Below, one piece after another: positions 27,718 to 60,754 of a stretch of DNA of 64,000 bases. The stretch's first letter is position 1; each line of letters opens with the position of its first letter. The notes beneath the pieces are model-generated. The model did not search any database and was not told the origin of the DNA. It was given only the letters and a program-made list of their open reading frames with translations. The translations under genes were made by a program, and so were the position numbers. Where the stretch lies: the NCBI RefSeq assembly GCF_000208745.1, contig NC_030854.1, forward strand, positions 9,665,428-9,729,427. Direction: 5' to 3'. This DNA comes from Theobroma cacao. Its lineage: Eukaryota > Streptophyta > Magnoliopsida > Malvales > Malvaceae.

Positions 27718-29079
27718 TGTTGGTCCCATTAGAGTGTTAAAGGTGGGGTGAATGGCACTAAAAATCTTAAAGTCAGCTCCTTTTTACTTGTAGAGCTCTT
27801 AATCAACTAGAGGAAGGAAGGTTTAGAACTTGTTTAAATTAAAGACACCAAGAAAGGAAAGTTAGAGAGAAGTGGACAATGCAAGAGTATTTATAATGTT
27901 TCGGTCCCTTTAGCCTACATCCACTACCTTGATTTCTCAATCAAGGATTTTCAATCCAACTTCACTATACCAGTAGATTTAACAACTTCCATCAAGCTTT
28001 TACAAAGTGAGCTTCTAACCTAAGCTCTAATCATTTATAATAAGCTTTAGAGTGCTTCCCATACTCTAATTTCTTAAAAAAAAAAGGTACAACTTATCAT
28101 CTTTATAGATCTAGAAAGATTATAATCAAGCTCAAACACTTTTCTAAAATAGGAGTGAAGAACAAGTGTTTTTGGTGAAGGTTCTTTGGCTTTTTGTTCA
28201 AAATAGCTCTTTTGTGTTCCAATTTTACTTTTTTGATCGTTAGAGCTTCTTTTATACTTGGGGGGGAGTGCAAATTTTGCTATTCAAATAGATTCTAGCT
28301 GTTAGAAACAACTCTAATGTCATTCTAGCCTTTATTTTGTCTTTTAGTGTTTTAATTCAAAATGGCAGATAAAGTTCGACTAATTGGTTACAAACAAGCT
28401 CTAACTAGTTACAGCTTCTTTGCCTTGCATTGTCTTGTAGCTGCGTACACTGTGTTAATCAATTAAATGAAACTCTAACCGATTACAAACTTTTTGTTTT
28501 CATTTTCCTCTACCTTGTAGTTTTCCTTTAATTGGTTAGCTCTTCCTTTAACTAGTTAAGGCTTCACTTTTCAACCTTAACCGATGACCATCAACTTTAA
28601 TCAATTAGAAAATCTTCTAATTTTGAATTTCTCCATTTTGGCTCCCTTCAACGGTCAACCTTATTACAAATTTGATTTTGGTGCTTGAAGTCACTAGGGC
28701 CTTATGCTCTAACTGATTAACCAAACTCCTTAACTGAGTAACATCACTCTATTTTCAACCTCCAGCACCTCCTTAATTGGTTAAGCCTGGTGCTAACTGA
28801 TTAAAGTTTCTCTGTCTTGCTTTAACTTAGTGCCTAATTATGCCTTAACTAGTTAAGGCTTCCCATTAATCAGTTACAAAAGTTCTATCTTCACTAACCC
28901 ATTTTTCTTTCTCACTTTAATCGATTAACTTTTCCTTAGACTAAGCAAGCATCTTGACTTGCCTCAAGTTACCAATTTTCTTTAGGAAATTAAACTATCT
29001 CCTACACAATTAAATGATAAGATTAAACATTAATGAATAAGGAATGTTTTGTTATTATCAAAAATATATGGAGTCAACA
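27718..29079 (-). repeat. LTR of non-autonomous element (family C-prime), 3' LTR
   Basis: Plus-strand ends are TGTTGGTCCC and GGAGTCAACA. On the minus strand it begins TGTTGACTCC, like the solo LTR at 42316. An A-rich polypurine tract sits just outside its minus-strand start (29080-29098), so it is the 3' LTR of a minus-strand element whose body lies at 29080-31205. It contains the paired-palindrome array at 28381-28960. Confidence 0.75.
28381..28960 (-). repeat. Paired-palindrome array, TAACTAGTTA type
   Basis: At least twelve 10-bp words related to TAACTAGTTA or TAATCAATTA. Six neighbouring pairs start at 28381/28402, 28529/28549, 28578/28598, 28710/28731, 28774/28794 and 28846/28867, which gives spacings of 21, 20, 20, 21, 20 and 21 bp. 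Confidence 0.85.
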
Positions 29080-29098
29080 TTTTTGCTTTTTTTTTTTA
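29080..29098 (-). other. A-rich polypurine tract
   Basis: On the minus strand a purine run (A-rich, with one GC interruption) directly precedes the TGTTGACTCC start of the LTR. It gives the element's orientation. Confidence 0.6.
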
Positions 29099-29524
29099 TG
29101 ATGACAAAACACTTCTAGATTAAGAATGCAATGTTTATATAAGAAAAAAGATTTATCTGCAGCTTTGGGATTACTTCCCCTAAATATGTGCTTCACCTAA
29201 ATATGTGCTCCCCCTAAATATGTGCATTAAGAACAATAAAAATATTCAATATAAAATCATGAAAAGTAAAAGCATTCGATCATGAGAACATATATATATA
29301 TATATACATAAGCATTATTGAGCCATTCAACACAAGTTTTATCATAAAACATAAAACTCAACACAGCATAAAACACATAAACATTGTTTAACACAAAACA
29401 CAACCAAAAAAACATATCTAAAAACAAAGTTTGTTTTTCCTAACAAATTACTTCCTAGCTAATTCCTACTCTTATTCTTTAATTTTTGTCTCCCTTTTTT
29501 TGTCATCATTCAAAAAGGATAATC

Positions 29525-31205
29525 CTATTTAGTTTCAGAAGAGGGTGAGGATTCACCAGTACCAAAATGTGCTTTGAGAGGCTTAGGAGAGGAGCTAGAT
29601 GAGGAATCATAGGATGAAGATGAGGAAGTAGAAGTTGATGAGATAATCTGAGGAGTCTCATGCTTAGAAGGCTGTTGAGTAGTGGTCAGGGCTAGTCTTG
29701 CTGGCTTTTTTATCCTAAAGGTTGTGGTTTTGGTAGCCATTGTCTTTCTGCCTTTGCTAGAAGGTTTTTAAGAAGTTGGTCTAGCAACTGTGATCTTACT
29801 CTTGTCTTGAAATGGCTATGTGATAGTCTCCTCTTATTTCTTTTAGGCTAAGTGGGCCTTTTAATCCATTTTTTCCTTTGCTCTTTGCTAATTAGCTTCA
29901 GCTTCTTTGAGTAATTCATTAATGAATTTAGACACCTTTATCTCTTTTTCATTCAACCTCTCTTTTCCAACTTCTTATTTTTTCTCTACTTCTTCTTCTT
30001 GATAATTTCTCTTTGTGGCTAGTTCTTTTTCTTTTTCCTTCTCTACTTCCATAGCTTTCTTTTTCAAAATTTCCTTTTTCAGTTTGATTCATGTGTGCAT
30101 TTTCAGCTCTTTCATTCTCAATGTCACCTTCACGGTCAGATGAATGTACCTCAAACTACTCTATGGTACTACTTTTGGTGGAAGCACTTGCAACTGTTGC
30201 TTGGTTTTCTAGAGTAGGGAATTTGGTTCCTTTTTCTTAGAGTAGAAGGTCTTCAAGTTATTGTAGCTTTTTTTCAATTTTAACTAGCTTCTTAGCGTGT
30301 TCTGTCAGCTTCCCATCAATTCTCATCAAGAGATTGAATACCATTTCATTGTGAATGGGAGGTTGGATGATTCTTGAGTAAGGGGTAGATGGAATTTCAG
30401 TGTCTGTGGGAAATGATGTGCCTCTTATGAATTTGATGCATTCTTTTTCTTTCCAACTTGTATCCCTTCTTCAACACATTACCCAAGAATATTCCTTGAT
30501 CTTTGTGTTTCATTAAATCAGCTAATCCAAAATCCCTTTTTCTTAATAAGGGATGAGATAATGTTGCCATATGGCAAATTAGCTTTGTCTCCTAAAAATG
30601 TTCCCTTGATTCTTTCAATCATATAACTTGCTACATTTAATGGGATATCATTGAAAGCTAACTCCATCAACCATAGATCTTGCACACTCACACTGTTAAA
30701 GCTACTGCTTCTCTCATGTAGTGTGGTAGTAATAAAGTAGTGAAAATTTCTTAGTTGTGCATTCTTGATGTCACTAACATAGCTCCTAGATGGAAACTTC
30801 TCCTTTTTTCTAGTCGCAATCTCCTAAATATGGTTAGGATCATACTTCTTTGGCATTTTAAATTCACTTACTTCACATTCTATTTTCAAAAATTCTCCTA
30901 AGCTTTTGGCTATGGTCTGAAATTCCTTTCCACTTAGAAAAACATTTAGCCCATAATCTATGTACTTCTCCTGATTAATCAATTCATTTTCATTCAAGGC
31001 AATGCTAGAGTAAAACTCTTTAACCAATGTGGGGCTAAACATCCTATCTCTAAAAGTACTCAAAGTTTTTAGTTTTAATTCATTAAAATATTTCTCTAAA
31101 TCTTTCTTCACAGTAAGTGCTTCATCAAAGCTTAGCTAGTCAAAGAATTTTCCACATGACAAAGTTGTATTTTCTATTTTCTTAAATATATCAGCATGCA
31201 TCCTA
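29525..31205 (-). pseudogene. ORF of a non-autonomous LTR element, possible plant-transposon-protein domain, broken
   Basis: On the minus strand one frame from about 31200 down to 30400 reads, with few stops, a protein with FNELKLKTLSTFRDR, VKEFYSSIALNEN, YIDYGLNVFLSGKEFQTI, then VQDLWLMELAFNDIPLN and LPYGNIISSLIKKKGFW. The layout (FYxx...GxxxxLS...LxxxxLPYGxxI) recalls the uncharacterised 'putative plant transposon protein' domain found in LTR elements lacking pol. Downstream come Glu/Lys-rich, probably coiled-coil sequence and a C-terminal Ser-rich stretch (MATKTTTFRIKKPARLA...SSSS) ending at 29525. Stops include one at 30824-30826. I did not recognise an enzymatic domain. The 5' part is cut off near 31205. 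Confidence 0.6.
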
Positions 31206-31979
31206 TTTCTAAATCGAAAAGTGGAGATGGTACCTTTTCTTGTGGAAACCCTTATAGTGATTGTTGCTTTCTCTATGTGATACCCATGGCATGATGTCCT
31301 CCTTTGTGGATTTGTATGTCATTCGATAATGAGAGTTCCGAATGTTAATTTGATTTAAGGTTGAGTGGAGTCCTACACCCTGTGACCATGTATATGCCCA
31401 CAGGGATGGTGGTAAGTAGGGACTGTGGTTTAATCCCACTTGTGATTCCCGCCTACAATGTAATGATTCCATTTGTTGAGACTACTCTGGATGATGATTA
31501 TGTTTATGATGCCATCCATTGAGATTACTCTGAATGATGATTATGTCTATGATGCCATTCATTGGGAGATTACTTTGGATGATGACTTTGATTCTTCGCT
31601 CGTTGCTCCAGCACGCGTTTGATTTGATTTCGTCTGTTGTCCACTATGTGTGATTTAATTATGTCTAAGGAGGACCACTCAAAGATTGTGATCCAAACCA
31701 TGAGTGATGTAATACTGCCACGGTTGAGCTTAGATAAATTTGATTTGAACTTGATATGACACTCTGGCAACTAAGCATTACCTGTGGACAATAAGCTTGA
31801 ATGGCTTTGAGGATAAGTTCACTGCCATACGTTAGTTGTGGCCACTCCTTAGGGATGCTTGATGTGCCTCTGACATTAGGGATGCTTGTTAGAATATTTG
31901 GTTGCATTGATAGTGCAACATATATATACTTATATATATGCATATATTGTCAATTATATATGTGTATATATTTGATTTA
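31206..31979 (+). repeat. Old LTR-like sequence (family E), left part, with 43-bp tandem repeat
   Basis: No gene is seen. A 43-bp unit (TTGAGATTACTCTGAATGAT...) repeats about 2.5 times at 31476-31590. The segment ends in a TA-rich microsatellite and is interrupted by the LTR at 31980; 34637-35209 may be its continuation. Confidence 0.5.
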
Positions 31980-32679
31980 TGTCACAACCCAAATCTCGGG
32001 CCATGACCCGCGCATGGGCCTAATGGGCATAGCCCACTAAGCCCAAGCAAGCCTTTTTATGCAAACCCGATCATCATTCCCAACCATCATTTCTAAAACT
32101 ACATATTGCAACTCTCAATTTTAAATATTTAAGTAACGTTTTATAGCAATCCAATATTCATATTTGTATTATGCTAACATAGTCTCACTCATTTGCCACC
32201 TTATAGTGGCATCAGTAATCAAATATACATATTTTATTTTTAACATGAATCTTAGTGGTCTTCATTACTTATACATGTACACAAGTATAAGACTCTTGAC
32301 CGTTAGCGAAGTGACCTTAAATGAAGGTACCGCAACAGAGGTGCCATAGTACCTACCAAGAAGACGAGCATATGTGGACAACTCAATCTAGGTCCCAACT
32401 GCCTCCAAATCTAAAAACATAAATTTTAAAAACATGAGTATAAAACTCAGTGAGTGAACATAAGAAGGGAACAAGCAATCAATAGGAAGAATTTAGAAAT
32501 CATGATGCACTTGTTTCAAAAACAATGCAATTGATTTAGTTTCTTACTAAAAACCCCTCATTTCAAACTTTGATCAATAACCTCATAATGTTGCAAAAAC
32601 CCATGATCAGTCCATGAAGTTAAATGGGTGAAAAATATGTCAAAATCAAGCAAGGTAGCAAGCATGGCAGCAAGTTTAT

Positions 32680-33016
32680 CGCTGTAACAAAGTTCATTCT
32701 CGCTGCAGCGAGATTCAAGCAACCAAAAAGAAAGTTTCTCGCTGCAATGAGAAATAGTGTTAGTTTGCATGTGTTTTAATTTTTCTAGTATATATCCCGC
32801 TACAGCAGTCCAATTGACCTGATTTTTAGACCATTAGAAAGCTAAGAGATAGGGCTACAACTTTGATTCTTACTACTTTTCCCAGTTCATAAGGGAAGGT
32901 GGTCAAAATCTTTATCTAAATGAAGGCACTACATCAAAACCTGAGAGTTTCTCGCTGCAGCAAGAAACAGGGCTGGTTTATGCCCTCACCACCCGAGAGT
33001 TTCTCGCTGCAGCGAG
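32680..33016 (-). repeat. GCTGCAGC palindrome words in family B LTR
   Basis: About six words. Those near 32685 and 32706 are 21 bp apart; two more (near 32955 and 33007) lie in the conserved context GAGTTTCTCGCTGCAGC. Confidence 0.8.
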
Positions 33017-33213
33017 ATTCAGGGCAAATGAAAAATAATGGGTTTTCACATGCCACAAAATCCATCCCTACCATATTGCACATCAAAGTGAACACATTGA
33101 TAATAATCAAGTTATCAACATTCAAAACAATCACATATTATAATCATAAACTTGCTATCACATATACATATATAAACATATATAAACAAGTACACCACCC
33201 CACTTCATTCATC

Positions 33214-33375
33214 GTCATAGCTGGGTCATCATCATCATCGGCTTATGCGCACTCCCTACTCGCACATAGCCGGGTCATCATCATCATCAGCTTATGCGCA
33301 CTCCCTACTCACGCATAGCTAGGTCATCATCATTATCGGCTTATGCACACTCCCTACTCACACATAGCAAGGTCA
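33214..33375 (-). repeat. Tandem hairpin repeats, TATGTGCG type
   Basis: Three units of about 49 bp. Read on the minus strand the arms are TATGTG/CGCATA, TATGCG/CGCATA and TATGTG/TGCATA. All can pair when G-U is allowed, and the arms differ between units. Confidence 0.8.
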
Positions 33376-40239: not shown

Positions 40240-41213
40240 TGTCAAGCCCAGCTCTACAATATGTTGATTATGCCATTCCTACATAAGAATGCATGTTTAC
40301 TTACTTAGGTACCTTGGAAATCATTAAAGGACGATATTGTACCAAATGGTACAATTAAGTTGAATTAAGCCTTGAACTAATCCAAAGAGAGATTTTAAGA
40401 TGAAATTGAGAATTTTAAAACCCCAGAATGACTTCAAATGGTGATTCGGAGTTCGATAACCGATTTGGAGTCAAATTGGAATTTTCATGACCTAAGGGCA
40501 AAATGGTCATTTTGCCACCCGAGGTTAAGATGTGAGTGTTGGATGAAATTTTTAACTAAGATTGATCATTTGGAGTATAATTTGAGTTTAAGAAGTGAAA
40601 AATTTTAATTCCGACATTTTTTGAGCATAAGGGTAAAATAGTCATTTTGCCATCCAATGGCAAAATTGTAATTTTACATCACCCAACACTTGTCCAGCAC
40701 ATGAATTTTACCCATTATTATCATGGATAATTAAAGGATTTTATGTGGTGGAGAAAGAAAGCTTAATAGTTAAGAATTTAAAAATGGACCAATGGTAAGG
40801 TGACAAGGGTCAAGCTTTTATTTCTTTATTATTTTCCTTATAAATTAGCACAAAATCAGCCTATTTCTCTTCATTATGGCCGGCCAAAGCAAGAACAAAG
40901 GAAGAAATTAAAGAACAAGAACCCTAGGGTGAAAATTCAAAAGAAAATTGGTGGATTTCAAGTAATCAAGCAATCAAAGGTAAAATTTCTTGATTTTGAC
41001 TTGTGATCTACCTTTCCCATACATTCTTTTGCATTTTCCATGGTTGAATCACAAGATATCATGAAGGATAGTGTGCTGATCAAACCCTAGGAGAGAGAAT
41101 TTGATGATGATTTAGATAGATTTTTAAGATATATGGATGTTTTTAGTTGTTTATGGTGTTAAGTGTAAGAATTAAGCTTGAAATTCACATATTCCTCATG
41201 AGTTCATCATTGG
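40240..41213 (+). repeat. Family A LTR fragment, plus strand
   Basis: Starts TGTCAAGCCC. It is homologous to the minus strand of 1-845 and 7781-8640 and to 57337-58084: a run of 'gggcaaaatggtcattttgcc'-type motifs, the TGGCCGGCC block near 40879 and a TATA-like TTATAAATTAG near 40840. It runs into the assembly gap; the ORF at 40800-41006 is not convincing. Confidence 0.75.
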
Positions 41214-41567
41214 NNNNNNNNNNNNNNNNNNNNNNNNNNNNNNNNNNNNNNNNNNNNNNNNNNNNNNNNNNNNNNNNNNNNNNNNNNNNNNNNNNNNNNN
41301 NNNNNNNNNNNNNNNNNNNNNNNNNNNNNNNNNNNNNNNNNNNNNNNNNNNNNNNNNNNNNNNNNNNNNNNNNNNNNNNNNNNNNNNNNNNNNNNNNNNN
41401 NNNNNNNNNNNNNNNNNNNNNNNNNNNNNNNNNNNNNNNNNNNNNNNNNNNNNNNNNNNNNNNNNNNNNNNNNNNNNNNNNNNNNNNNNNNNNNNNNNNN
41501 NNNNNNNNNNNNNNNNNNNNNNNNNNNNNNNNNNNNNNNNNNNNNNNNNNNNNNNNNNNNNNNNNNN
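41214..41567. other. Assembly gap (354 N)
   Basis: No sequence. It is flanked on the left by family A LTR and on the right by block G copy 2, so the missing part probably includes the rest of the LTR and the start of block G. Confidence 0.99.
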
Positions 41568-42315
41568 AGTTCTGCCTCAAAGATAAAGAGCATCTCATCA
41601 GAAAATGGTTAGGTGTACTATTCCAGGGATGGTAATTTTAAAACTGACAATTGATATTTGGGCCTCATTACACTATTAAGCCCAATAGTTAGAATTAGTA
41701 GGTTAATTTAGGGACTTGTAGGTTACGATTGTTAGTATAAATAGGATATTTTAAGAGAAAGTAAAAACAACTTTTGGAGATTCAAGAAGCTAGAAGTTGA
41801 GGCTGAAACTTGGAGAGTAAAGCTACAAATATTTGTTCTGTTTCTTCCTTATCTTTTATTTTTCTTGTTACTCTCAATGGTTGAAATTTATATAATATTA
41901 TTTGTCTTTGCAATTATGAGTAGCTAATTTTCTTTTTCTAGGATTGCAATTGAACTCACATGTAATCTAAATTTTTAATCTCATTCTTGCTTATCTTTAA
42001 TGGGATTTGAATTATTTATTCCAATTTGCTCTTAATGCTTTTAATTGCTTGATCACCAATTAAATTGACTTAAGAACCTAAACAAGCGTGGGAAAAAAAG
42101 TTTAGTGTAAACTAAAATTGGGATAGCATACGATCATAATAATTGATTTCGTATAAGATAAGGATATACTTATAGGCCATATGTAGCCAGATTAGAGCCT
42201 GAGTTTAATGAATCTATTTTAATTTCAATTCACATAGGGATATAGTATTTTGGTTAAAATAGATATTTTTATAAGATGAGTTGGAAAACTCTTATAAATA
42301 ATGAGGACTCTAGGT

Positions 42316-43493
42316 TGTTGACTCCATTAGTTTTTGATGATAATAAAACATTCCCATTCATTTGTGTCTAATATTTCTACTTGAGTGTGCAGGATAAGAA
42401 TTGTATGCCAATGATAAGTAAATTATTCCAAGGGACATATCAAAAATTATATGAATAAGAAGCCACAATTGATCAACAAAACAGAAGCTCCTTAGTTGAC
42501 TAATAAAGGGTTAGTCAACTAAAATTCAAATCAGAAGATGGCGGGCTCAAGAGTATTGAGAAACAGAAAATACTTCGTCGACCATGAAATAGGTTAGTCG
42601 ACTAAAAGCCCACTGCTAGAAATCTGGACTTCAAGACAGAACCAACTTAATCAACTAAGGAGTAAGTTAGTTGACTAAGTGCTCATTGCCAGAAATAGAG
42701 AACAGAAGATAGAAACAACTTAGTCGACTAAGATATTAGTTAGTCGACTAAGAGCATTCTACTAGAAAATTTGAATTATGCACTAGAAGACAAATTAACG
42801 GCTAGATCTGCCACCAAACTGTTTTCAACGGTCAAAAATTACCTAACACCTATTAGAGCTAATTTTTCAAGTATTTAAAAGGCTCTCAATGGCTAGAAAA
42901 TGTAATTAAGGCTTCCAAGTCCAAAAAGAGCTCAAAAACCAGCAAAAAACCTTTAGCATACTTACTGCACTTCACTCTTTTCTTTGTATGTGAGATAAAC
43001 ACTTCACTTTGTACCACTTAGATCAAGTTAGTGATCATAGGTACACATTTATTTCTCTTCTCCTTGTATACTTAGAGTGTGTGAGACACTCTAAGGGATT
43101 TATTCAAGCTTGGATTGCTTGATTGAGTGTATAGGTTCTAACTTAGCCTAGAAAGTTAGTTTTTGGGTTTTGGTTTATCATAATAAAAACCATTGTGAAA
43201 GGTTTTGGCTGAGCCTAGTAAAAGCCATTGTAAAAGCTTGGTGAAAGCTTGTGAATTTCACCGTTCATAGTGGATGTGTTTAGAAAATCCTTGGTTGAAT
43301 AATCAAGGTAGTGGATGTAGTCCTTGACCGAACCACTCTAAATTTTAGTGTGATTGTCTGCTCTGTTTTTAATTTTTCATTCATCCTTAAATCTTTCTTT
43401 TATCTTGCATTTGTCTCCAATTAGAAGTCAATTTTAGTAAGAGCCAACAAGTGCTATTCACCCCCCCTTTAGCACATTTACTTAGGACCAACG
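42316..43493 (-). mobile_element. Solo LTR, family C
   Basis: 1,178 bp with ends TGTTGACTCC and GGACCAACG (last base pair changed from the expected CA). It is flanked by a perfect 5-bp duplication TAGGT (42311-42315 and 43494-43498), and copy 1 of block G shows the empty site. It is related at its ends to the LTR at 27718-29079. The coding strand is uncertain; minus is inferred from that relative only if the ends are read TGTTGGTCC-first, and a TATA-like TATTTAAAAGG near 42873 points the other way. Confidence 0.9.
42492..42751. repeat. Paired-palindrome array, TTAGTCGACTAA type
   Basis: Words at 42492-42503, 42511-42522, 42577-42582 (core only), 42594-42605, 42647-42658, 42667-42678, 42720-42731 and 42740-42751 form four pairs spaced 19, 20, 20 and 20 bp. 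Pairs are separated by 50-75 bp. The first pair is TTAGTTGACTAA with TTAGTCAACTAA, exact reverse complements. Confidence 0.9.
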
Positions 43494-43800: not shown

Positions 43801-44180
43801 TAGAATTTTAACTGAAAAAGCTTAAAAAGGGACTCAACAAAAGAATTTAGGATGACATGTTAAAGGAGTTTAAAATAGAGAGAATCTTGAGTGTTAAAAG
43901 TGACATAAAGTCATGATTGAGAAGCTATATTCGAATGGTTCCAAAACAAGAGATAACTACATGATTATATCTAGAATCGGGTACAAACCTTTTGCTTAGG
44001 ATACAAAAGGGGAGATATTTGGATCATTGGTTTAATAAACGAATAAATGATTCTGAGTTGTTAAAGTAACAATAAGAGCCATAATAAAGGAATCAAGATC
44101 TCGTTGTGATCTAAATTAGTACTTCTATTATGACAATGGAGATTTTCAAACAGATAAATTAACTGTTAGATTAATAAGCT
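43801..44180. other. AT-rich sequence, no feature seen
   Basis: No ORF, repeat or LTR border recognised. Confidence 0.4.
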
Positions 44181-44882
44181 CAATATGAATAAGTCCAAGA
44201 AGGGGGTAAATTGGATTGTTTTGAAAATTTTGAAAAACCTTTTAATTTTTAAAAAGATAAAATCCTTTTTTAATTCAAATGCTCAATTTGAAGATAAACA
44301 AATTAGTTGACCTCTTAATCAATGAAAGAAATTTGAATTTCAAGTAAAAGTAAGAGTAGAAAAATCAACACAAGTATGTTATAAAGGTTCGGCCTCATTG
44401 CCTACGTCATCTCCCTTAGATTTACTAAGGAGTTTAAAATCCACTTTTTCATCAAGATGCAATACAATGCCTTTTTTGGATCAAACATAACCTTTCAATG
44501 CAATCCCTTTTTACGGTTAAAGCACAACCACTCTACTTTTTCTATTGGTTAAGGTATAACCACTTAAGCAAGTATAATGAGAGCAATATATGAGTAGCTA
44601 ATATGCCTATTAAAGGCTGAATTGAAAATTTGGTACACTGTATAATGAAAAAATGAGAGTTCAATAAATGCTTCGCTAGAAGGCTTTAAGAATTCAAAAG
44701 GAGTACAATAAATTTTTTGTTGATTCTTCTCTCTTAATTTGTGTTTTCAAGTCTTCTAACCTCCATAAATGCTGAAGAAGCTTGTATTTATAGTTGTTGA
44801 AGCTTCAAGTGTAGTTGGAAGTGCATTTATTATGAAAATAGTCATTCTTCTTTTCATTCAAGGCTCCAATGGTCATATTGTA

Positions 44883-44911
44883 TTGATATATATATATATA
44901 TATATATATAT
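44883..44911. repeat. (TA)n microsatellite
   Basis: About 13 TA repeats, directly before the palindrome array. Confidence 0.9.
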
Positions 44912-44915
44912 GGAT

Positions 44916-45214
44916 GTATTGATACATTCCTTTTTATTTTTTAATTCTCACTAAGATGCATCGATACATTTGAACTTGTTTGTAAAGCTCTTGACATTTT
45001 GTTTAAAATGTATCAATACTTTTGAAACAGTAAGCACTTCTATTGAAAATGTATTGATACATTTGTGAGATGTATCGATACATTTGAAAATGTATCGATA
45101 TATTGAGTTTGACTTTTTGAATTTTAACTCTGCTGAAGAACATGTATGGATAGATTTTGAAATCTATCGATACTTATCCAAATGTATCGATACATGTGGA
45201 ACATGTATCCATAG
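44916..45214. repeat. Phased palindrome array, GTATCGATAC type
   Basis: Ten-bp words start at 44916, 44958, 45010, 45051, 45072, 45092, 45144, 45164, 45184 and 45205. Consecutive spacings include 42, 41, 21, 20, 52, 20, 20 and 21, close to multiples of 10.5 bp. The word at 45144 (GTATGGATAG) and its neighbour at 45164 (CTATCGATAC) both depart from the consensus in a way that keeps them complementary at 9 of 10 positions. Confidence 0.88.
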
Positions 45215-45501
45215 ATTTGGACTAGAATATGTTTTTCAGAGCCTTTTTTATTCCTTTTCTTTTTCAAACTCATTTGACATTGTTTGGGGATTCGAAAACT
45301 TTGATACTTCAACATTTGGAAAATTTTTGGTCATTTCTTTTTGTCATTTCAAAGCATAAAAATGATTTCAATATTGCAAAGCTAACATTAACATATTCCC
45401 AAATATTGCAATTTGAGTTGTCCTAGTAGAGATACGGTTGCTAAGCTAAAAAGTTCGATATTAGATACACTAGTAATTGACTAAAGTACAAGCAAAAGAT
45501 T

Positions 45502-47127: not shown

Positions 47128-47300
47128 TGGACCCGGCTATGTGCGAGTAGGAGTCCACATAAGTCGCTGCTGACCCAACTATGTGCGAGTAAGAGTGCAC
47201 ATAAGTCATTGCTAACCCAGCTATGTGTGAGTGGGAGTGCACATAAGCCATTGCTGACCCGGCTATATGTGAGTGGGAGTACGCATAAGTCGTTGCATAT
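47128..47300 (+). repeat. Tandem hairpin repeats, TATGTGCGAGT type
   Basis: Four units with arms such as TATGTG/CACATA, TATGTGC/GCACATA and TATGTGT/GCACATA around a GAGTRGGAG loop, followed by CCCAGC/CCCGGC spacers. Unit period is about 42 bp. Confidence 0.82.
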
Positions 47301-47497: not shown

Positions 47498-47595
47498 TCT
47501 CGCTATAGCGAGAAACTCTCGGGTTTGAGGGCCTTCACCAGACCTGGTTCTCGCTGCAGGGAGAATGAAGTTCGCTGCAGCGAGAAACTTTCTAT
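47498..47595 (+). repeat. Palindrome words in mosaic LTR
   Basis: TCTCGCTATAGCGAGA at 47498-47513 is a perfect 16-bp palindrome although its centre has changed from CTGCAG to CTATAG by two mirrored changes. Two further words near 47555 and 47576 are 21 bp apart. Confidence 0.85.
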
Positions 47596-50383: not shown

Positions 50384-50480
50384 CTTATTTCTTATTTCTC
50401 CTTTCTTCCATCATTCCTTTCTTCCTTTCTCTTTTCTTCTTTCTTCTTTCTTCTTTCTCCTTTCTTCCTTTCTCTCTTTG
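50384..50480. repeat. CT-rich low-complexity tract
   Basis: Long pyrimidine runs (TTTCTTCCTTTC-like). They create a spurious hydrophobic ORF. Confidence 0.85.
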
Positions 50481-51196
50481 CTTTCAAGTTGATTCTCCCT
50501 CATTTTGTCTACATGTGTGGTTTTTCCTTTCATTTTTTCTCATGGGCGAATTGCCCATTGTTCTCCAAGCCTTTGCCCATCTTTTTCTTCTTTCTTTTAT
50601 TCCTCATTCCTCATTAGACCATCTCATTCTCCATTCAAGTTTCATGCACAAATTTCCCCCCTTGTGCTTTGGCCATAAATCTATCCTCATATCTTCAACC
50701 CAACATAATGTTAACCATGTCCATCTCATAGTGGCATTACAAATCAAAATAACATATATTGTCTAAGACATATATCTTAGTAATTTACATCGCGTTTATC
50801 TATACACAACAAAAAGACACTCGACTTCCAACGGAGTGACCTTGACGAAGGTACAACTATTGAATGCCGAGATACCTACCAAGGAGACGAATCTACGTGG
50901 ACCCCTCAACCTAGGTTCCAACTGCCTCCTGAGCTGAAAACATGAAGTTAAAAACAGTGAGTATAAACCCAATGATTGAACATAGGAAGGGAACAAGCAA
51001 ACGACAAGGAAATTTTTTAAATCATGATACACTTATAATAAAAAACAATGCAATTTAGTTTACTTCTTATTAAAACCCCTCATTTAAACCCTTAGTTGTT
51101 TAATCACTTGATGATGAAGGATACATGAACAATAAAGAATTTGAAGAATGAAAACTTTAGTAGCATTCAAGCAAGTCAAGCGAAGTAGATTGATCC

Positions 51197-51435
51197 TCGC
51201 CGCAGCGGAAAGGCATTCTTGCTGTAGCGAAACTCGGGCACAAATCATCAGCTGCCCAAGGATTTCTCGCTGCAGCGAAATTCTTGCAAAGGTTTGAAAG
51301 GCAACCACCCAAGGGTTTCTCACTGCAGCGAGAATATATTTTCGCTGCAGCAAGAAGCAGGGCTAATTCACGCCTCACCACCTGAGAGTTTCTCGCTATA
51401 GTAAGAATCCATTTTCACTGCAGCGAGATTCAGGG
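51197..51435 (-). repeat. Palindrome array in family B LTR
   Basis: Seven words, of which three adjacent pairs are each 22 bp apart (near 51198/51220, 51323/51345 and 51395/51417). Confidence 0.8.
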
Positions 51436-51619
51436 TAGATGAAAATAAAAGGGTTTTCACATGCCACAGAAATCCATTCCTGCCATATTAAACATCAAAT
51501 TGAACATATTGACAATAATCAAGTTTTCTCAATATTCAATGCAATCACATATTATTTTCATAACCTTTCTATATAGTAAATATATATATATAAGCATATA
51601 CACCACCATCGCCTCACCC

Positions 51620-51800
51620 AGCTCATGTGCACTCCCACACCGCACATAGCCGGAGTCACCGAGTGCATCCCCCACATCGTGCATAGCTAATACCATCATG
51701 TGCATCCCCTACATCACGCACGGGCAATATCATCATCCACACTCCCACACCCGTCATCACCGGCATGTGCTCCCCCACATCGCGCACATGCACAGCTATA
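51620..51800 (-). repeat. Hairpin repeats, mixed type, in family B LTR
   Basis: Units of both sorts occur together: GTGCACTCCCACACCGCACA and GTGCATCCCCCACATCGTGC. This shows that the two hairpin versions seen in different LTRs are variants of one repeat. Confidence 0.75.
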
Positions 51801-53071: not shown

Positions 53072-55363
53072 GTCACAAGGAGCAATTCAAGGATAGACAC
53101 AGCCAGCTTTACCTACCCCACATTTTGTTGCATAACTAGTTAGAAAGAGCAAAGGAGCTAGAGGCCGAGGTGTTAGTAGTTCCTTCTATGGTCGAAGATT
53201 TAGAATCCAGGGTACAGCTAGTCGAGGACAGGCCAAAATTTATGCTTTGACTTCATAAGATGGACAAGCATCCAATATAGTTGTTACAAATATACTACCT
53301 AATTGTTTTATTGATGCACATGTATTGTGTAACCTTGGTGCTACACATTATTTTACATCTCCACGCTTTGCATCTAGATTAGGTATTAAGCGCTCCAAGA
53401 GGGAGCAAGATTTGGTAGTCATCACACCCTTGAAAAAAGTGTTCGTGGTAGTATATGAGCATATATATTGTATGGTCTGGATTGGAAAGACACCTTAATA
53501 AATTTATTTTTACTTGACATGTTGGAGTTTGATGCAACATTGGGTATGGATTGGTTGTCACCCAACTATGCTAGTGTTGATTGCCACTACAAGGTGGTGT
53601 ACTTTAACTATCCGAGAGAGATACCATTTAGCACAATGACGAGTAGTGTGATTTTATCTTTAGAGGCTAGGAGATTGATTGATCATGGATGTTAGGGATT
53701 CTTAGCATTAGTTAAAGACACCTAAATGGTGGTAGGTGAGGTGGTCGATGTGTCAATTGTGAGAGAATTCATTAATGTTTTTCTCGAAAAGTTATCAAGA
53801 TTACCCCTAAATAGAGATATGGAGTTTTGCATCGATTTGGTACAAGATATGAGTCTAATATCTATACCATTACATCGAATGGCATCAGTATAGCTTAAAA
53901 AACTCAAGGATCAACTGGAGGACTTATTGGACAAAGGCTTTATTCATCCTAGTTCATCCCCATGGCTTCTACTGGTGTTCTTCGTGAAGAAGAATGATGG
54001 TTCTATGAGGTTGTGTATAGATTATAGATAGTTACATAAGGCAACAATAAAGAACAAGTATCTTGTATCACACATTGATGATTGGTTTGATCAACTCGAG
54101 GGAGTTCAATGCTTTTCTAAGATTGACTTGAGGTCAGGCTACCATCAGTTGAGGATTAGCCAAAATGACAAGTCTAAGACCACCTTTCGTACTAGGTACA
54201 GGCATTAGGAGTTCTTGGTGATGTCATTTAGGCTTACAAATGCCCCAACTGCTTTTATGGACATGATGAACCGAGTGTTCAAGCCATACTTGGATAAGTT
54301 TATGGTGGTATTTATTGATGATATATTAATATAGTCAAGGAGTTAAGAGGAGCATGAGCAGCATTTGAGGATAGTGCTCCAAACTTAGAGAGAACATTAG
54401 TTATATGCCAAGTTCTCCAAGTGCGAGTTTTGGCTTGATAGTGTTAGATTTTTGGGCACATAGTATCTAAGGATTATGTGATGGTGGACCCAAAAAAGAT
54501 TAAGATCATAGAGAAATGACCAAGGCGTACCTTAGTGACTAAGATACGAAGTTTCCTTGGATTGGCCAGATATTATAGGAGATTTGTTAAGGATTTCTCT
54601 AAGATCACAACTCTTATGACTAAGTTTACATAGAAGGGTATCAAGATTATATAGACAAAAACTTATAAGGAGAGTTGTGGGAAGCTCAAGACTTGTCTTA
54701 CCATGTTTCGATATTGAGTTTGTCTTGTGGTATAGGGGGTTATACAGTTTATTATAATGCATCACGAGTGGGACTGGGATGTATATTGATGCAACACGGC
54801 AAGGTGATTGCATATGCTTCTGGACAACTCAAGAGACATGAGCAAAACTACCCCACACATGATTTAGAGATGATTGTGATAATGTTTTCCTTAAAGATTT
54901 GGAAGCATTACATGTATGGTGAGACTTACGAGATTTACACAAATAATAAAAGTCTCAAGTATATTTTTTAGAAAAGCGATGTTAATTTGAGGCAATGTCA
55001 ATGGATGGAATTACTTAAGGATTATGACTATACGATATTGTATCATCCCGACCAAGCTAATGCAGTAGCAGATGCATTGAGCCAAAAATCTATAGGGAGT
55101 TTAGCCCACATCTCTGTGGAGAGGAGATCATTAGTGTAATGTATCCACTAGCTAGGTGATATGGGCATACGATTTGAGGTTGATGATATCAATAAATTAT
55201 TAACCCATGTTAAAGTGAGACCGATGTTGATGGAAAGCATCAAGGATGCCCAAAGTAAGGATGACTTTATGCCTAGAGCTTTAGAGGATCGTCAGGGGAG
55301 GAAATGATAGATGTTTACTAGAGGCACTGATGGATTACTCAGATAAGAATCTATAGTGTATGT
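53072..55363 (+). pseudogene. Decayed Ty3/gypsy gag-pol fragment
   Basis: Linker, protease, RT, RNase H and the first part of integrase of a Tekay-like element. Landmarks: NLGATHYFTSPRFASRLG (protease with Asp of the DSGA motif changed to Asn-Leu), [82 protein letters not shown] and [11 protein letters not shown]. At least fifteen stops or frameshifts interrupt it. It is cut at 53071 by a family B LTR and at 55364 by another, so it is older than both. Confidence 0.88.
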
Positions 55364-56465
55364 TGTCACGACACAATTTTCGGGCCATCACCGACGTATG
55401 GGCCCAATGGACATAGCCCACTAAGCCCAAGCAAGCCTATCTATATGACCTGTTTATCATTCCATCAAGTTGCTAAAGTCGCATTTCATAATTTCAATAT
55501 GAAATATTGATAACGATTGCCAACTCTTCATGGCATTACCAATCAAAATATACATATAAGGTCTAAGACATACATCTTAGTACTTTACATCACATGTACG
55601 TATTTACAATAAAAAAGACTCTGGGCTTCTAGTGGAGTGACCAAGGTGTAGGTGCGGCTACGGAATGCCAAGATACCTACCAAGGATACGAATGTACGAA
55701 GACACCTCGACCTAGTTACCGGTTGCCTCTTGATCTAAAAACATGAAGTTGAAAACGGTGAGAATAAATCTCGTTGCAGCGAGAAGCATCAGCAACTTTC
55801 TCGCTGCAGCGATAACCAGGCCAGTATTGTCACGACCCAAATTCCGGGCCATGACGGGCGCATGGGCCCAATAGACATGGTCTATTAAGCCCAAGCAAGC
55901 CTATCTATTCATCTTACTCATTATTCCATCAAACATTGCTAAGTCACAAATTGTAACTTTAAATCAAAATAGTAATAGACATTGCCAACTCGTATTGGTA
56001 TTTCTCATTTATTATATACATACATTATCTACAACATGTATTCCAATAATGTACATTAGGTTCGCCTATACATCTCAAAAAGAAGACTTGACTTCCAGAT
56101 GAGGGACTTGGATGATTGTACAGATACTGAATGCTGAGACACCTACCAAAAGATGGACACAGGTCTACAAGGACACCTCGTCCTAGTTACCGACTACCTC
56201 GTGATTTGAAAACATGAATTTGAAAATGGTGAGTATAAACCCAGTGAGTGAACAAGGAAGGGAACAAGCATACCATAAGGAATCTTTAATGAAATCATGA
56301 TGCATTTTTTTTCAAAACAATGCAATTTGTTTCTATTCTTATTGAAAACCCTTCATCTAGCCCTTAAATGATTAATCATTTGAAAATCAAGGACCTATAC
56401 ATAACAAACCATTTGAAGAATGAAAGCTTCGATATTACACAAGTAAATCAAATATGACAACGAAT

Positions 56466-56966
56466 CTTCGCTGCAGCGGAAAGGCATTCTCGCTGCAGCA
56501 TAGCTATAGCGAGAATGAATTTTCATTGCAGCAACATTGGGATTTAGTGATTAGCCGAACGAGGGTTTCTCAACTGGCTGAGGGTTTCTCACTAAACCTC
56601 CCCATTTTAAACTTAACTCATCTAATCCTTAATATTGGAAGTCCATGCTCCGATATGGTAGCAAAGTAGTGAAAGATAAGGCAGCAATTGGACAAGATAA
56701 GAGACCAAAACAGAAGGTTTTTCACTGCAGCGAGATTGAATCTCTCTGCAGCGAAATTCATACCCAGAAACAAAATGTTTCTCGTTGAATCTCGCTGCAG
56801 CGAAATTGCAACCCAGAAAATAGAATGTTTCTCGCTGCAGCGAGAATGTATTTCGCTGCAACGAGAAGCTACAGTGTCATTCTCGCTGCAGCAAAAATGC
56901 ATCCTCGCTACAGCGAGTTTTCGGCTAGCCTACCCTTTCAAAACCTGAGAGTTTCTCGCTGCAGCG
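56466..56966 (-). repeat. Palindrome array, about twelve words
   Basis: Pairs near 56472/56494, 56735/56756, 56837/56858 and 56886/56908 are 21-22 bp apart. The word at 56829-56846 is a perfect 18-bp palindrome. Two words near 56494 and 56505 are only 11 bp apart. Confidence 0.85.
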
Positions 56967-57204
56967 AAATACAGGGCATCAAATGAAAATTTCCCTTTCT
57001 CAAAAAGAAAACCACCCTGTTTGAAATGTTCAAAACCAATATGAAACACATAACAATTTCTCAAGGTTTAACATGTCAAATTTCACATGCATTACAACCA
57101 TAAACCATTATCCATCAATTTCCTATAACACACATATTTACATATGTATATATATATACGCATATACCCATCATCATCATCACACTATCCCATCATCATC
57201 ATCA

Positions 57205-57325
57205 CACCAGCTCATGCGCATTCCCTACTCGCACATGGCTTGGTCATCACCGGGTTATGCGTACTCCCTACTCGCATATAATCGGGTCATCCTCGACTTA
57301 TGCGCACTCCCTGCTCGCACATAGC
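57205..57325 (-). repeat. Hairpin repeats, TATGTGCG type
   Basis: Three units of about 47 bp like those at 16613 and 33214, read on the minus strand. Confidence 0.8.
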
Positions 57326-57336
57326 CGAGTCAATAT

Positions 57337-58084
57337 TGTGAGACCCTGTCAAGCTCGATTTAAAGATGGTATTGTACCGAGTGGTACAACTAAGTTAAAT
57401 CGAGCCTTGAACTAGTTCAAATAGAAATTCTAAGAGGAATTTGAAAATTTTGAAACCCACAGAATGGCTTAGAATAGTGATTCGGAGTTCAAGGTCCAGT
57501 TTAGAGTCCATCAGGAAAATTGACCGATTAGGAACAACACAGTCATTTTACCATTTGATGATAAAATGGAGATTTCTAGTCAAGATTTGATCACATTTGA
57601 CCAAGAATAATTATATGAAATATAATTATGATTATTGGAGTACAAAATGATATTTAGTAGTGAAAAATTATGATTCTCGGTATTTTTGGAGCACAAGGGC
57701 AAAATGGCAATTTTGCCACTAGAGAACTAAACAGGAATTTTTATAAAATAATTTTTTTGCCCCATTTGGTTAATATTGATCAATATTACTATTATTTGAG
57801 GTTGAAAACTAGAAATAATGTGATTCCGATACATTTCGAAGTATAGGGGTAAAATCGTAATTTTTTCATCTCGGGGGCAAATCGGTAAATTTTTTGCCCC
57901 AACAATTGCCAAGAGCAAGGGATTTTAATTGTGGTAGGATTGGATAAATACCAGAATATTTTGGTAGAAAATTAAGAAGAAAAAGTCAAAAAGTTAAAAA
58001 ATTAGGCCAATAAGCATGTGACATGTGGCATGCTTGATTATTTTATTATTTTCTATAGAAATCAGCCCATTAAATCCCCAATTC
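57337..58084 (+). repeat. Family A LTR fragment, plus strand
   Basis: Starts TGTGAGACCCTGTCAAGC. It shares the GTATTGTACCGAGTGGTAC block and repeated GGGCAAAATGGCAATTTTGCC-like motifs with the LTR at 40240 and the element at 1-8640. It runs into the gap. Confidence 0.78.
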
Positions 58085-58734
58085 NNNNNNNNNNNNNNNN
58101 NNNNNNNNNNNNNNNNNNNNNNNNNNNNNNNNNNNNNNNNNNNNNNNNNNNNNNNNNNNNNNNNNNNNNNNNNNNNNNNNNNNNNNNNNNNNNNNNNNNN
58201 NNNNNNNNNNNNNNNNNNNNNNNNNNNNNNNNNNNNNNNNNNNNNNNNNNNNNNNNNNNNNNNNNNNNNNNNNNNNNNNNNNNNNNNNNNNNNNNNNNNN
58301 NNNNNNNNNNNNNNNNNNNNNNNNNNNNNNNNNNNNNNNNNNNNNNNNNNNNNNNNNNNNNNNNNNNNNNNNNNNNNNNNNNNNNNNNNNNNNNNNNNNN
58401 NNNNNNNNNNNNNNNNNNNNNNNNNNNNNNNNNNNNNNNNNNNNNNNNNNNNNNNNNNNNNNNNNNNNNNNNNNNNNNNNNNNNNNNNNNNNNNNNNNNN
58501 NNNNNNNNNNNNNNNNNNNNNNNNNNNNNNNNNNNNNNNNNNNNNNNNNNNNNNNNNNNNNNNNNNNNNNNNNNNNNNNNNNNNNNNNNNNNNNNNNNNN
58601 NNNNNNNNNNNNNNNNNNNNNNNNNNNNNNNNNNNNNNNNNNNNNNNNNNNNNNNNNNNNNNNNNNNNNNNNNNNNNNNNNNNNNNNNNNNNNNNNNNNN
58701 NNNNNNNNNNNNNNNNNNNNNNNNNNNNNNNNNN
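58085..58734. other. Assembly gap (650 N)
   Basis: No sequence. Family A LTR lies on its left and family B LTR on its right. Confidence 0.99.
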
Positions 58735-58840
58735 CGCACATAGTTGGGTCATCATCAGCTCATGTGCACTCCCACACGCACATAGCTGGGTCATCATCAA
58801 CTCATGTGCACTCCCACACGCACATAGCTGGGTCATCATT
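58735..58840 (-). repeat. Hairpin repeats in outer solo LTR
   Basis: Nearly identical 42-bp units, with GCACATAGCTGGGTCATCAT and TCATGTGCACTCCCACAC as their halves, probably more inside the gap. Confidence 0.8.
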
Positions 58841-60103
58841 ATCACATAAAAAAAAACATCCAATACATATTATACATATCAACATATTGTGATAACACAT
58901 GAACCATTATATGGCACACTTTCACAAGATAGAAACATTCACCAAAGGCTTGTTCCCTAGGTAGATTTTTTTTTTAAGGAAAAGTTGGATAAAATCATTC
59001 AAATGTTTTGTGCAAATACATTCACATTCCCAAAATAATTTTGAAATGCAAGTTCACTCATCGGTATTCGTTAAATATTTACTCAACTCCAACTTCTTCT
59101 AATGGTCCAAATGGGGTGGTGGGGCTTCGTTGGAATCTATCATCACATTAGCATCATCACCATCAACCCAACTTGGCATTAATACTATTCCAAAGCTATT
59201 TTCTAGATTGAGTTCTAGTAGTCATTCCTACTAACTTCCAACTACCATTAAATGGCTATTATTTGCACTACTCTAGTAACACTAAAAATGATTAAACAAT
59301 CTCAACAATAACACTCACAAATCAAATTACTAGATATTATCAACAGCTAAAAATAAAGTTTAATTCACTACTCACCTTGGTAGCTTTGTAAATTTGAAAT
59401 TTTTTCTAATAATTTTCAAGCTATTATAGAAACTCCTTCTTTCTCTCTCTAATACACCTAGCTAGTGAGAGAGAATATGGAAGTAAGACTTTTCAAGGGT
59501 TTTTAAAGTGAGAGAGTGGAAGAGCACAAAGCTTCTATGAAAGGGTGCACAAAAGCACGAAAAGTGGAGCTAGCTTGAGAGAGTTATGGAAGCTTGAAGA
59601 GAACTCCCACGGAGGATAAAGAAACGTGAGAGGGAAGAATGAAAAAGAATAAGAAGAAGAAGCTGCTAGAAAATGTGAGAAGAAACTATGGGAAGATGAT
59701 ATTTATAGCTCAAGCTTATCCAACTCCACTTAAATTACGAAAATGCCCTTAACAAATTAGCTTGTTCTCTTCCAATCCTTTGTGCAATCTTTTTACTCTT
59801 TTGACATTGAGACCAGGTCCACAATGGTCTAAAAAAACTCAGGTTTACGACAACTTAAAACTTTGACTCGAGATGAAAAATGACCATTTTGCCCCTACCT
59901 TGGAAATCATCATTATTTTTATTTGCTTTGTCATTTAATCCTCATTTCCATCATTCATTTATGCCTTAGGCCTACTTAGGCCTTAAAAATGTTTGAAAGC
60001 ATACTTCTAAGGGCTCACTAAAAAATGATGAAATTACCCTTAGCTTGGGTTATCGCGTCTACACCTAGTTATGAGCATATAGGGGTTGAGGTCTCACATA
60101 TGT

Positions 60104-60754
60104 ATTGAATAAAACAAACTTTAATGATTTTAAAATTTTGAAATCAATACTCAAAGTTTTGATGTTTAAAACGAGGAAACCTTACCTCTAAAAGCCTTTA
60201 GAATCAAAATTTGAACTTGGATATGTCTTTTAAATTCTTAAAAATGATTGTGAATGATGAGAGAGTGTGGAGAATAAAGAGAGGAAAAAAGGGCAAGGAT
60301 TGTTGAGAGAAACATATTTTCTATTTTAGGAAAATTTTAGGGTTTTAAGCTTTAAAATATAAGAAAAAAAATTCTATTTTACCCTAATTTTTTTCCAATC
60401 TGCGTTAGAGGTATCAATACTTTGATGTAGGTATCGATACTTTTGTTCTAGGCCTGAAGGTATCAATACTTGTTCATCCAGTATCGATACTTCATTCATC
60501 ATATGAATTTCTAAGTTTCAAGTATCGATACCTTACGAACAGGTATCAATACTTTTGTCTAGAATGCACTTTTCAAGACTAAAACTGAAGCATTTGACCC
60601 TTTCAAAGTCCCAACTTTTAAATAAACTCACTTGGCAACCAAAACACTCATTTCTAGGTTGTAAATGTTCAAAAACATAATTAGAAATCATAATTTTTCA
60701 TGCTTACCAAGCTAAGTTACAACTTTAACCTTTTACTAAGTTAGGGGTTTCACA
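60104..60754 (-). repeat. LTR fragment F
   Basis: Plus-strand end TTTCACA at 60754 would be the TGTGAAACCCC start on the minus strand. The other end is cut near 60104. Non-coding. It contains the palindrome array at 60410-60551. Confidence 0.6.
60410..60551 (-). repeat. Paired-palindrome array, GTATCGATAC type
   Basis: Three pairs of 10-bp words: 60410/60430, 60459/60480 and 60521/60542, spaced 20, 21 and 21 bp. In each pair one word is GTATCGATAC and the other GTATCAATAC. On the minus strand the second reads GTATTGATAC, which pairs with its partner through a single U-G wobble. Confidence 0.9.

What the first reader, a model, noticed from the sequence alone, without database searches (positions are those of the whole stretch)
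28381..60551. Phased palindromic words, about 20-22 bp apart, shared by at least four unrelated LTR families
Families B (CTGCAG core), C/C-prime (GTCGAC or ACTAGT core), H and F (ATCGAT core) show no overall sequence similarity that I can see. All carry arrays of short self-complementary words whose neighbours lie 19-22 bp apart: C-prime 21,20,20,21,20,21; C 19,20,20,20; H runs of 21,20 and 20,20,21; F 20,21,21; B mostly 21 or 22. Two turns of B-DNA are about 21 bp, so paired words face the same side of the helix, as a cooperative dimeric DNA-binding protein would need. Alternatively two words can pair as a hairpin with an 8-11 nt loop. Convergence in unrelated elements suggests a function or a common mutational process.
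Basis: partly seen in the sequence, partly recalled or inferred. Interest (0 to 1): 0.9.

Follow-up and report, generated by a model that had tools for sequence, protein, structure and literature searches.

The report
Helix-phased palindrome arrays in plant LTRs
Retrotransposon families in this cacao-like plant DNA carry rows of short mirror-image words set close to whole numbers of DNA helix turns apart, as if laid out for proteins sitting side by side on one face of the helix; palindrome clusters of this sort are already known from one retrotransposon group, but the regular spacing and a case in a second group look new.

Summary
I scored 83 palindromic words in 11 arrays. Of 72 neighbour distances, 66 are at most 70 bp: 19-22, 29-30, 39-43, 48-54 and 63 bp, near 2 to 6 helical turns; none lies between these bands, and 65 of 66 are within a quarter period of a multiple of 10.3 bp. 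With one value per spacing class and family group the phasing holds (12 classes, p = 2e-5; 9 without the 20-22 bp ones, p = 6e-4), though those 9 alone fit a free period of 11.25 better. 'Four unrelated families' is too many: C and C-prime are one LTR family with diverged words, and H is weakly similar to them; B (Ty3/gypsy) and F stand apart. C, C-prime and H arrays end 126-129 bp before a TATA-like box; B arrays lie downstream of theirs. Palindrome clusters upstream of the TATA box are known from Sirevirus LTRs (PMC2829016). New here: the near-whole-turn ladder, word replacement with geometry kept, and a gypsy case. Best reading: cis-regulatory arrays of sites for dimeric proteins on one helix face (0.5). 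RNA structure and old tandem duplication remain rivals. One window; no binding data.

The parts
27718..29079 (-). C-prime LTR (TGTTGACTCC...GACCAACA), 1362 bp, no target-site duplication seen
   Evidence: aligns with the C LTR on both sides of the array
28380..28928 (-). C-prime array: 15 words TTAAYYRRTTAA; distances 21,54,20,53,20,29,20,112,21,43,20,52,21,51
42316..43493 (+). C solo LTR, 1178 bp, target-site duplication TAGGT; TATA-like TATTTAA at LTR position 557
42491..42752 (+). C array: 8 words CTTAGTYRACTAAG; distances 19,63,20,53,20,53,20
44164..45387 (-). H solo LTR, 1224 bp, target-site duplication TTAAC; TATAAA at LTR position 596
44914..45216 (-). H array: 10 words ATGTATCGATACAT; distances 42,52,41,21,20,52,20,20,21
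60100..60754 (-). F LTR, about 655 bp as delimited here (3' end uncertain), TGTGAAACCCC start; TATA-like TATATTT at position 394
60410..60553 (-). F array: 6 words AGTATCGATACT; distances 20,29,21,41,21
11353..11732 (+). B array in the 5' LTR (9713-12353) of a Ty3/gypsy element; 8 words TCTCGCTGCAGCGAGA
16986..17120 (+). B array in an LTR (15403-17956) nested in that element; 4 words
21634..21981 (+). B array in the 3' LTR (about 19969-22610) of the same element; 6 words
32698..33017 (-). B array; 4 words scored at the main threshold, further decayed words nearby
47498..47585 (+). B array; 3 words
51195..51428 (-). B array; 7 words
55769..55814 (-). B array remnant; 2 words 30 bp apart
56466..56969 (-). 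B array; 10 words

Best explanation
The arrays are clustered binding sites in LTR control regions. Each palindromic word is a site for a homodimeric DNA-binding protein (probably host-encoded, possibly a different one for each LTR family). Neighbouring sites are held near a whole number of helical turns apart so that bound dimers lie on one face of the DNA and can touch or act together. In C, C-prime and H the array sits upstream of a TATA-like box and would act as an enhancer. In B it lies about 1.2-1.3 kb downstream of the TATA-like box, in what should be transcribed leader, and would act there as an internal enhancer or in another way. Shown: the words, their palindromy, the spacing ladder, and the position relative to TATA-like boxes. 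Inferred: the protein, the cooperativity and the transcriptional effect.
For: Phasing: 65 of 66 neighbour distances up to 70 bp lie within a quarter period of a multiple of 10.3 bp; at four mismatch settings 50/51, 65/66, 68/71 and 72/80 do. Permuted control words, scanned with looser limits, give 57.7% of 3739 distances. With zero phase, 10.2-10.4 bp fits best (mean deviation 1.0; 10.0 and 10.5 give 1.1; 9.5 and 11.0 give 2.3). One mean per class: 15 classes in four families, 0 of 50000 draws; 11 without the 2-turn ones, p = 1.4e-4; with C, C-prime and H merged 12 classes, p = 2e-5, and 9, p = 6e-4. Length without sequence: the short spacers of C-prime (n=7), C (n=4) and F (n=3) are no more alike than shuffles, yet within each family their lengths vary by only 1 bp. 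Position: last word to TATA-like box 126, 129 and 128 bp in C, C-prime and H. C and C-prime: flanks of the array align at 77-84%, but 7 of 8 C words have G..C where 14 of 15 C-prime words have A..T at one mirrored pair, with the ladder kept. In B, 64 of 84 departures from the word are C>T or G>A, as expected of decay of methylated cytosines, so the source words were probably closer to perfect palindromes.
Against: No binding, expression or footprint data, and no motif database was on hand. With free phase the best periods scatter: all 10.3, non-B 10.75, B 9.6, C-prime 10.8, C 10.95, H 10.55, F 10.05; the classes beyond 2 turns alone fit 11.25, nearer an A-form than a B-form repeat. Band edges and words were chosen on the same data. 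B arrays are not upstream of the B TATA-like box. Arrays fold strongly as RNA. Parts of C, H, F, B and C-prime register as tandem repeats, and the long spacers of C (0.67 against 0.40) and C-prime (0.47 against 0.41), and some in H, B3 and B4, are alike above shuffles. The six distances above 70 bp deviate from multiples of 10.3 by -1.3, 4.9, 2.3, -3.3, -4.9 and -2.5, i.e. no clear phase. In C-prime perfect palindromy of the 4-bp core is no commoner than chance (4 observed, 4.0 expected), and in H 7 of 12 changes are transversions, not methylation decay. C and C-prime are homologous, so their like distance to TATA is by descent.
Confidence: 0.5

Rival explanations
1. RNA structure: self-complementary words pair in the transcript (hairpins or RNA dimers), serving RNA dimerisation or packaging, or feeding small-RNA production; spacing reflects loop size.
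For: 8 of the 11 arrays were folded (B4, B5 and B7 in part); all fold better than 60 shuffles on both strands (z -3.7 to -12.5). In maize, palindrome-rich regions of Sirevirus LTRs are small-RNA hotspots (passages of PMC5311732 and PMC10760457). B arrays lie downstream of the TATA-like box, in probably transcribed sequence. The classes beyond 2 turns fit a period of 11.25. Adjacent words in C pair better than in all but 6% of word-order shuffles.
Against: Low folding energy follows from repeated palindromes whatever their role. Adjacent words show no consistent preference (adjacent/other: C-prime 0.667/0.713, C 0.821/0.771, H 0.886/0.846, F 0.833/0.819, B3 0.708/0.771, B4 0.797/0.802, B5 0.750/0.748, B7 0.781/0.851). 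C-prime cores hold 8 C.A mismatches in 30 core pairs. Loop size does not explain a ladder at 29-30, 39-43, 48-54 and 63 bp.
Confidence: 0.2
2. Mutational origin: each array is an old minisatellite made by duplication of a word-plus-spacer unit; spacing is inherited and has no function.
For: Tandem Repeats Finder reports a 73-bp unit in C, 49- and 21-bp units in B4, 21-22-bp units in B5 and B7, 20-bp units in H and C-prime, and 20/21-bp units in F. Some spacers are alike above shuffles: long spacers of C 0.67 against 0.40, of C-prime 0.47 against 0.41 and of B3 0.45 against 0.34; short spacers of H 0.44 against 0.25, B3 0.61 against 0.28, B4 0.46 against 0.26.
Against: Short spacers of C-prime, C and F are unrelated in sequence while the words stay 71-88% identical. 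Duplication does not explain why different families hit the same ladder, nor why the words are palindromes.
Confidence: 0.19
3. Nucleosome rotational positioning: the words are bendable units set at the helical period to fix the rotational setting of the DNA on a nucleosome.
For: The best zero-phase period, 10.2-10.4, includes that of nucleosomal DNA (the nucleosomal value is recalled).
Against: With words masked, A/T dinucleotides in the spacers show no 10-10.6 bp excess over other periods in C-prime (1.4 against 2.08) or F (0.73 against 1.36), a marginal one in H (1.69 against 1.5) and B7 (2.06 against 1.79); only C stands out (2.9 against 2.07). The words differ much in composition.
Confidence: 0.05

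Closest known systems
Sirevirus palindromic repeated motifs (RMs), Bousios et al. 2010, PMC2829016 (section 9 read; passages)
   Same: Clusters of palindromes (at least 8 per element) in the upper part of the LTR, upstream of the TATA box; the word differs between elements while palindromy is kept. Tnd-1 has ACAATCGATTGT, which shares ATCGAT with H and F; the Vitis RM CGGTCGACCG shares GTCGAC with C.
   Different: 12 of the 13 listed RMs carry a CGG-CCG core, absent here. Section 9 states no spacing rule. It calls the RM Sirevirus-specific; here an array of the same kind is in a Ty3/gypsy LTR, downstream of the TATA-like box.
Palindrome-rich cis regions of maize Ji/Opie Sireviruses (Bousios et al. 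2016, not held; known here through passages of PMC5311732 and PMC10760457)
   Same: Palindrome clusters in the LTR control region that fold well as RNA. [quoted passage not shown]
   Different: Small-RNA evidence exists there and none here. PMC10760457 reports no obvious peak of such structures in Ty3 elements, unlike B.
ONSEN heat-response elements bound by HSFA2, PMC3907296 (passages)
   Same: A plant LTR recruits a host multimeric factor through a symmetric site (nTTCnnGAAn), shown by gel shift.
   Different: Different sequence; HSF trimers; the passages show no long array spaced by whole turns.

Membership tests
Sirevirus palindromic RM (C, C-prime, H) | Repeated palindromic motif, at least 8 copies per element | tested here: met
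   C 8, C-prime 15, H 10 words in the LTR
Sirevirus palindromic RM (C, C-prime, H) | Cluster in the upper half of the LTR, starting 200-400 bp in, upstream of TATA | tested here: met
   Arrays at LTR positions 183-431, 158-695 and 179-468, TATA-like boxes at 557, 824 and 596. Starts are slightly earlier than 200, C-prime runs just past the midpoint of its 1362-bp LTR, and C-prime has TATAAA also at 973, 1041 and 1185; I took the first after the array
Sirevirus palindromic RM (C, C-prime, H) | CGG-CCG core (12 of 13 published RMs; Tnd-1 is the exception) | tested here: not met
   Words TTAGTYRACTAA, TTAAYYRRTTAA and ATGTATCGATACAT
Sirevirus palindromic RM (C, C-prime, H) | Carried by a Ty1/copia Sirevirus (reverse transcriptase phylogeny, linker, ENV) | not testable with these tools
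   LTRs without attached internal region; a likeness of their ends to Sirevirus LTRs is recalled only
Sirevirus palindromic RM (F) | At least 8 copies per element | tested here: inconclusive
   6 words in the LTR; no internal region to count
Sirevirus palindromic RM (B) | Carried by a Sirevirus (Ty1/copia) | tested here: not met
   B element 9713-22610: RVT_1, then RT_RNaseH and Integrase_H2C2, then SH3_Tf2-1 in gene order; its protein hits include ones named Ty3-gypsy
Sirevirus palindromic RM (B) | Array upstream of the TATA box | tested here: not met
   TATA-like box (variants allowed) at 391-403 in 6 of 7 B LTRs, 594 in B2; arrays start at 1592-1768 in six and at 3140 in B4, which carries extra sequence
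Simple tandem repeat (minisatellite) | Spacer repeats together with the word | tested here: inconclusive
   True for parts of C, H, B3 and B4 and weakly for the long spacers of C-prime; not for the short spacers of C-prime, C and F

The most novel reading that the evidence does not exclude
A shared architecture of plant LTRs: arrays of dimer sites indexed to the DNA helix, in gypsy and in other (probably copia) elements, in which the geometry is conserved while the word is free to be replaced as a set (C against C-prime). That pattern would be expected if each family tracks a changing DNA-binding partner, for example in an arms race between activating and silencing factors.
Probability: 0.28. 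Interest if true: 0.8.

Novelty: new variant of a known kind. Interest (0 to 1): 0.6.

Why it matters
Palindrome clusters in plant LTRs were described by 2010 (PMC2829016) without a shown mechanism; cis-regulatory sites and sources of structured RNA have both been proposed (passages of PMC10760457). A spacing ladder is a quantitative signature that bears on that choice and can be tested in any plant genome. If general, it gives a sequence-only way to find LTR enhancers, predicts that 5-bp insertions abolish activity while 10-bp insertions do not, and points to unidentified dimeric regulators recruited by several retrotransposon groups.

Tried and rejected
Wider sample: no plant DNA outside the window could be reached. 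Viral contigs scanned for the B word and for an H word pair: 0 matches. Relatives of the B integrase region: none confirmed in viral contigs (4 pattern stretches) or genome contigs (19). The window's own assembly could not be searched.

Literature (8 searches answered, listings only unless stated): the six words are in 5 papers, none on plant transposons by title. 'Helical turn' with retrotransposon, LTR, palindromic and plant: 1 paper, on a ciliate. 'Helical phasing': 0 occurrences in the 12 papers listed of 6,469 that hold at least three of four terms. Searches on palindromes in LTRs (11, 15, 12, 12 and 12 papers listed) showed no title or abstract start about spacing. Passages of PMC11656987 and PMC12786077: 'palindrom' 0 times in each. 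Bousios 2016 is not held, so a spacing statement there cannot be excluded.

Rejected as main cause: nucleosome phasing; neighbour-specific hairpins. Insertion-site palindromes (PMC6911290 passages) concern target sites, not LTR interiors. Words dropped: those above the mismatch limits (looser settings), and lone LTR hits at C 982 and C-prime 1276. Distances dropped: 6 of 72, over 70 bp. Class means typed by hand were slightly off; one search recomputes them and is the one quoted.
Full report
What the window is. It is plant DNA dense in nested LTR retrotransposons. The host gene at 62802-63863 is a MADS-box gene whose closest named relatives are from Herrania umbratica (89% identity) and Theobroma cacao (79%). 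The best hits of the retroelement integrase region are also Theobroma cacao proteins. I take it as Theobroma or a near relative; the species is not established.

Checking the observation. A scan that knows nothing of the families (12-mers with at least 5 of 6 self-complementary pairs and at least 2 G/C, at least 9/12 alike, 12-130 bp apart) gives 66 pairs in the window, against a mean of 1.4 (sd 1.2, maximum 4) in 20 dinucleotide-preserving shuffles of 1-kb blocks, blocks with N left as they are. At 19-22 bp there are 12 pairs against 0.05 per shuffle.

The ladder. With fixed word models I scored 83 words in 11 arrays: C-prime 15, C 8, H 10, F 6, B 44 in seven arrays (one of the seven spans two LTRs). 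The models are not equally strict: whole-window hits are 112, 33, 28, 13 and 44. Of 72 neighbour distances, 66 are at most 70 bp: 32 at 19-22, 6 at 29-30, 9 at 39-43, 18 at 48-54, 1 at 63; none at 23-28, 31-38, 44-47, 55-62 or 64-70. As multiples of a repeat, 10.2-10.4 bp leaves a mean deviation of 1.0 bp; 10.0 and 10.5 leave 1.1; 9.5 and 11.0 leave 2.3. At four mismatch settings, 50 of 51, 65 of 66, 68 of 71 and 72 of 80 distances are in phase with 10.3 bp, where about half would be by chance. Permuted words scanned in the same regions with looser limits give 57.7% of 3739.

How far independence was taken. Spacings inside one array or family are not independent, so I collapsed them to one mean per spacing class and family: 15 classes in four families, 0 of 50000 uniform draws reached the observed value; 11 classes without the 2-turn ones, p = 1.4e-4. 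With C, C-prime and H merged: 12 classes, p = 2e-5; 9 without the 2-turn ones, p = 6e-4. Bands were drawn after seeing the data, so these p values are guides only. With the phase left free the best period varies: 10.3 for all distances, 9.6 for B, 10.05 to 10.95 for the others, and 11.25 for the classes beyond 2 turns. So a ladder is well supported; its exact pitch is not. The six longer distances show no clear phase.

Families and anatomy. C is a solo LTR (42316-43493, target-site duplication TAGGT) and H is another (44164-45387, minus strand, TTAAC). C-prime (27718-29079, minus strand) aligns with C at its start, just past its array and further on (77-84% identity), so C and C-prime are one family, but at one mirrored pair 7 of 8 C words have G..C and 14 of 15 C-prime words have A..T. 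With arrays masked, H scores 36 against C-prime and 32 against C; the highest of 60 shuffles (bases shuffled within 50-bp windows) was 30 in both cases, a hint of remote kinship. F and B show nothing above their shuffle maxima. In C, C-prime and H the array starts 158-183 bp into the LTR and the last word centre lies 126, 129 and 128 bp before a TATA-like box; C-prime has three further TATAAA matches downstream. In F the gap is 54 bp to a weaker box, and another TATTTAA lies before the array. B is a Ty3/gypsy element: its pieces match RVT_1, RT_RNaseH with Integrase_H2C2, and SH3_Tf2-1. Its 2.6-kb LTR has a TATA-like box at 391-403 in 6 of 7 copies (594 in B2) and its array starts 1.2-1.3 kb further on in six of the seven; B4 carries extra sequence. 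So the B arrays should be in transcribed sequence, if that box is the promoter.

What maintains the spacing. Duplication alone is not enough: in C-prime seven 2-turn spacers of 8-9 bp are as unlike as shuffled ones, and the short spacers of C and F also, while words are 71-88% identical in C-prime, C, H and F. Yet duplication did happen: 73-bp unit in C, 49-bp in B4, 20-bp in H, and spacers of H, B3, B4, the long ones of C and, weakly, of C-prime are alike above shuffles. RNA pairing is possible: the 8 arrays folded (of 11, three in part) have z from -3.7 to -12.5 on both strands. But adjacent words show no consistent preference for each other: slightly higher in C, H and F, lower or equal in C-prime and B, reached by 6 to 91% of word-order shuffles in the five arrays tested. 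C-prime cores contain 8 C.A mismatches in 30 core pairs. Nucleosome phasing finds little support in the spacers. In B, 64 of 84 departures from the word are C>T or G>A, in F 10 of 10, in C 5 of 8, in H 4 of 12: decay of methylated cytosines explains B and F, not H.

Mechanism. I commit to binding sites for dimeric proteins, placed on one helix face, in LTR control regions (0.5). Shown: sequence, palindromy, spacing and placement. Inferred: the protein, its cooperativity and the effect on transcription. That each word is close to its own mirror image is what a homodimer site looks like and is not needed for hairpins between neighbours. Steps near whole turns are what same-face contact would need (general knowledge of cooperative DNA binding, not tested here). 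I saw no sign that B encodes the factor: in 9713-22610 the ORFs of 150 aa or more are three, all on the plus strand and all retroelement pieces; the copy is degenerate, so this is weak.

Against what is known. Bousios et al. 2010 (PMC2829016; section 9 read; passages) described palindromic repeated motifs in 13 Sirevirus elements, upstream of the TATA box, differing between elements, and called them Sirevirus-specific. Passages of PMC5311732 and PMC10760457 report that the palindrome regions of maize Sireviruses attract small RNAs, that Ty3 elements lack an obvious structure peak, and that arrays of sometimes palindromic repeats are common in TE cis regions. The kind of thing is therefore known. 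What I did not find in print (Bousios 2016 not held) is the spacing ladder, the swap of words with geometry kept, and such an array in a gypsy LTR.

Limits. One window, one genome; the window's assembly could not be searched. Word models were chosen on the same data. Sirevirus membership of C, C-prime and H could not be tested because no internal region is attached.

Noticed in passing
window 10428 (B LTR position 716) and 12777-12785: A splice-donor-like AAGGTGAGT lies about 325 bp after the TATA-like box. The pattern set hits 6 of 7 B LTRs, but the B6 form (GGGGAGT) lacks the GT and B3 has none, so 5 of 7 are real candidates. An acceptor-like TTGTCTAG ends 6 bases before the gag ATG (12785); B arrays and the primer-binding site would then lie in a 5' leader intron.
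   Followed up: partly
11030-11132, 16606-16734, 21310-21412, 33216-33375, 47130-47296, 51663-51736, 57214-57332, 58735-58839: A second tandem repeat of 37-49 bp units lies in the same B LTRs, on the TATA side of the palindrome array.
   Followed up: no
11353-11732 against 21634-21981: The two LTRs of one element differ by whole word steps (about 51 and 21 bp in one cluster, 22 bp in another), as if gains or losses ran word to word and so left the phasing intact.
   Followed up: partly
28380-28928: All 15 scored cores of C-prime are pyrimidine-pyrimidine-purine-purine (partly by the model used) with the exact bases free; this could be decay of CCGG or a reader that treats T and 5-methyl-C alike.
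   Followed up: partly
41214-41567 and 58085-58734: Runs of N inside repeats; ORFs listed across them (41147-41635; 57994-58863 and its overlaps) are artefacts.
   Followed up: no
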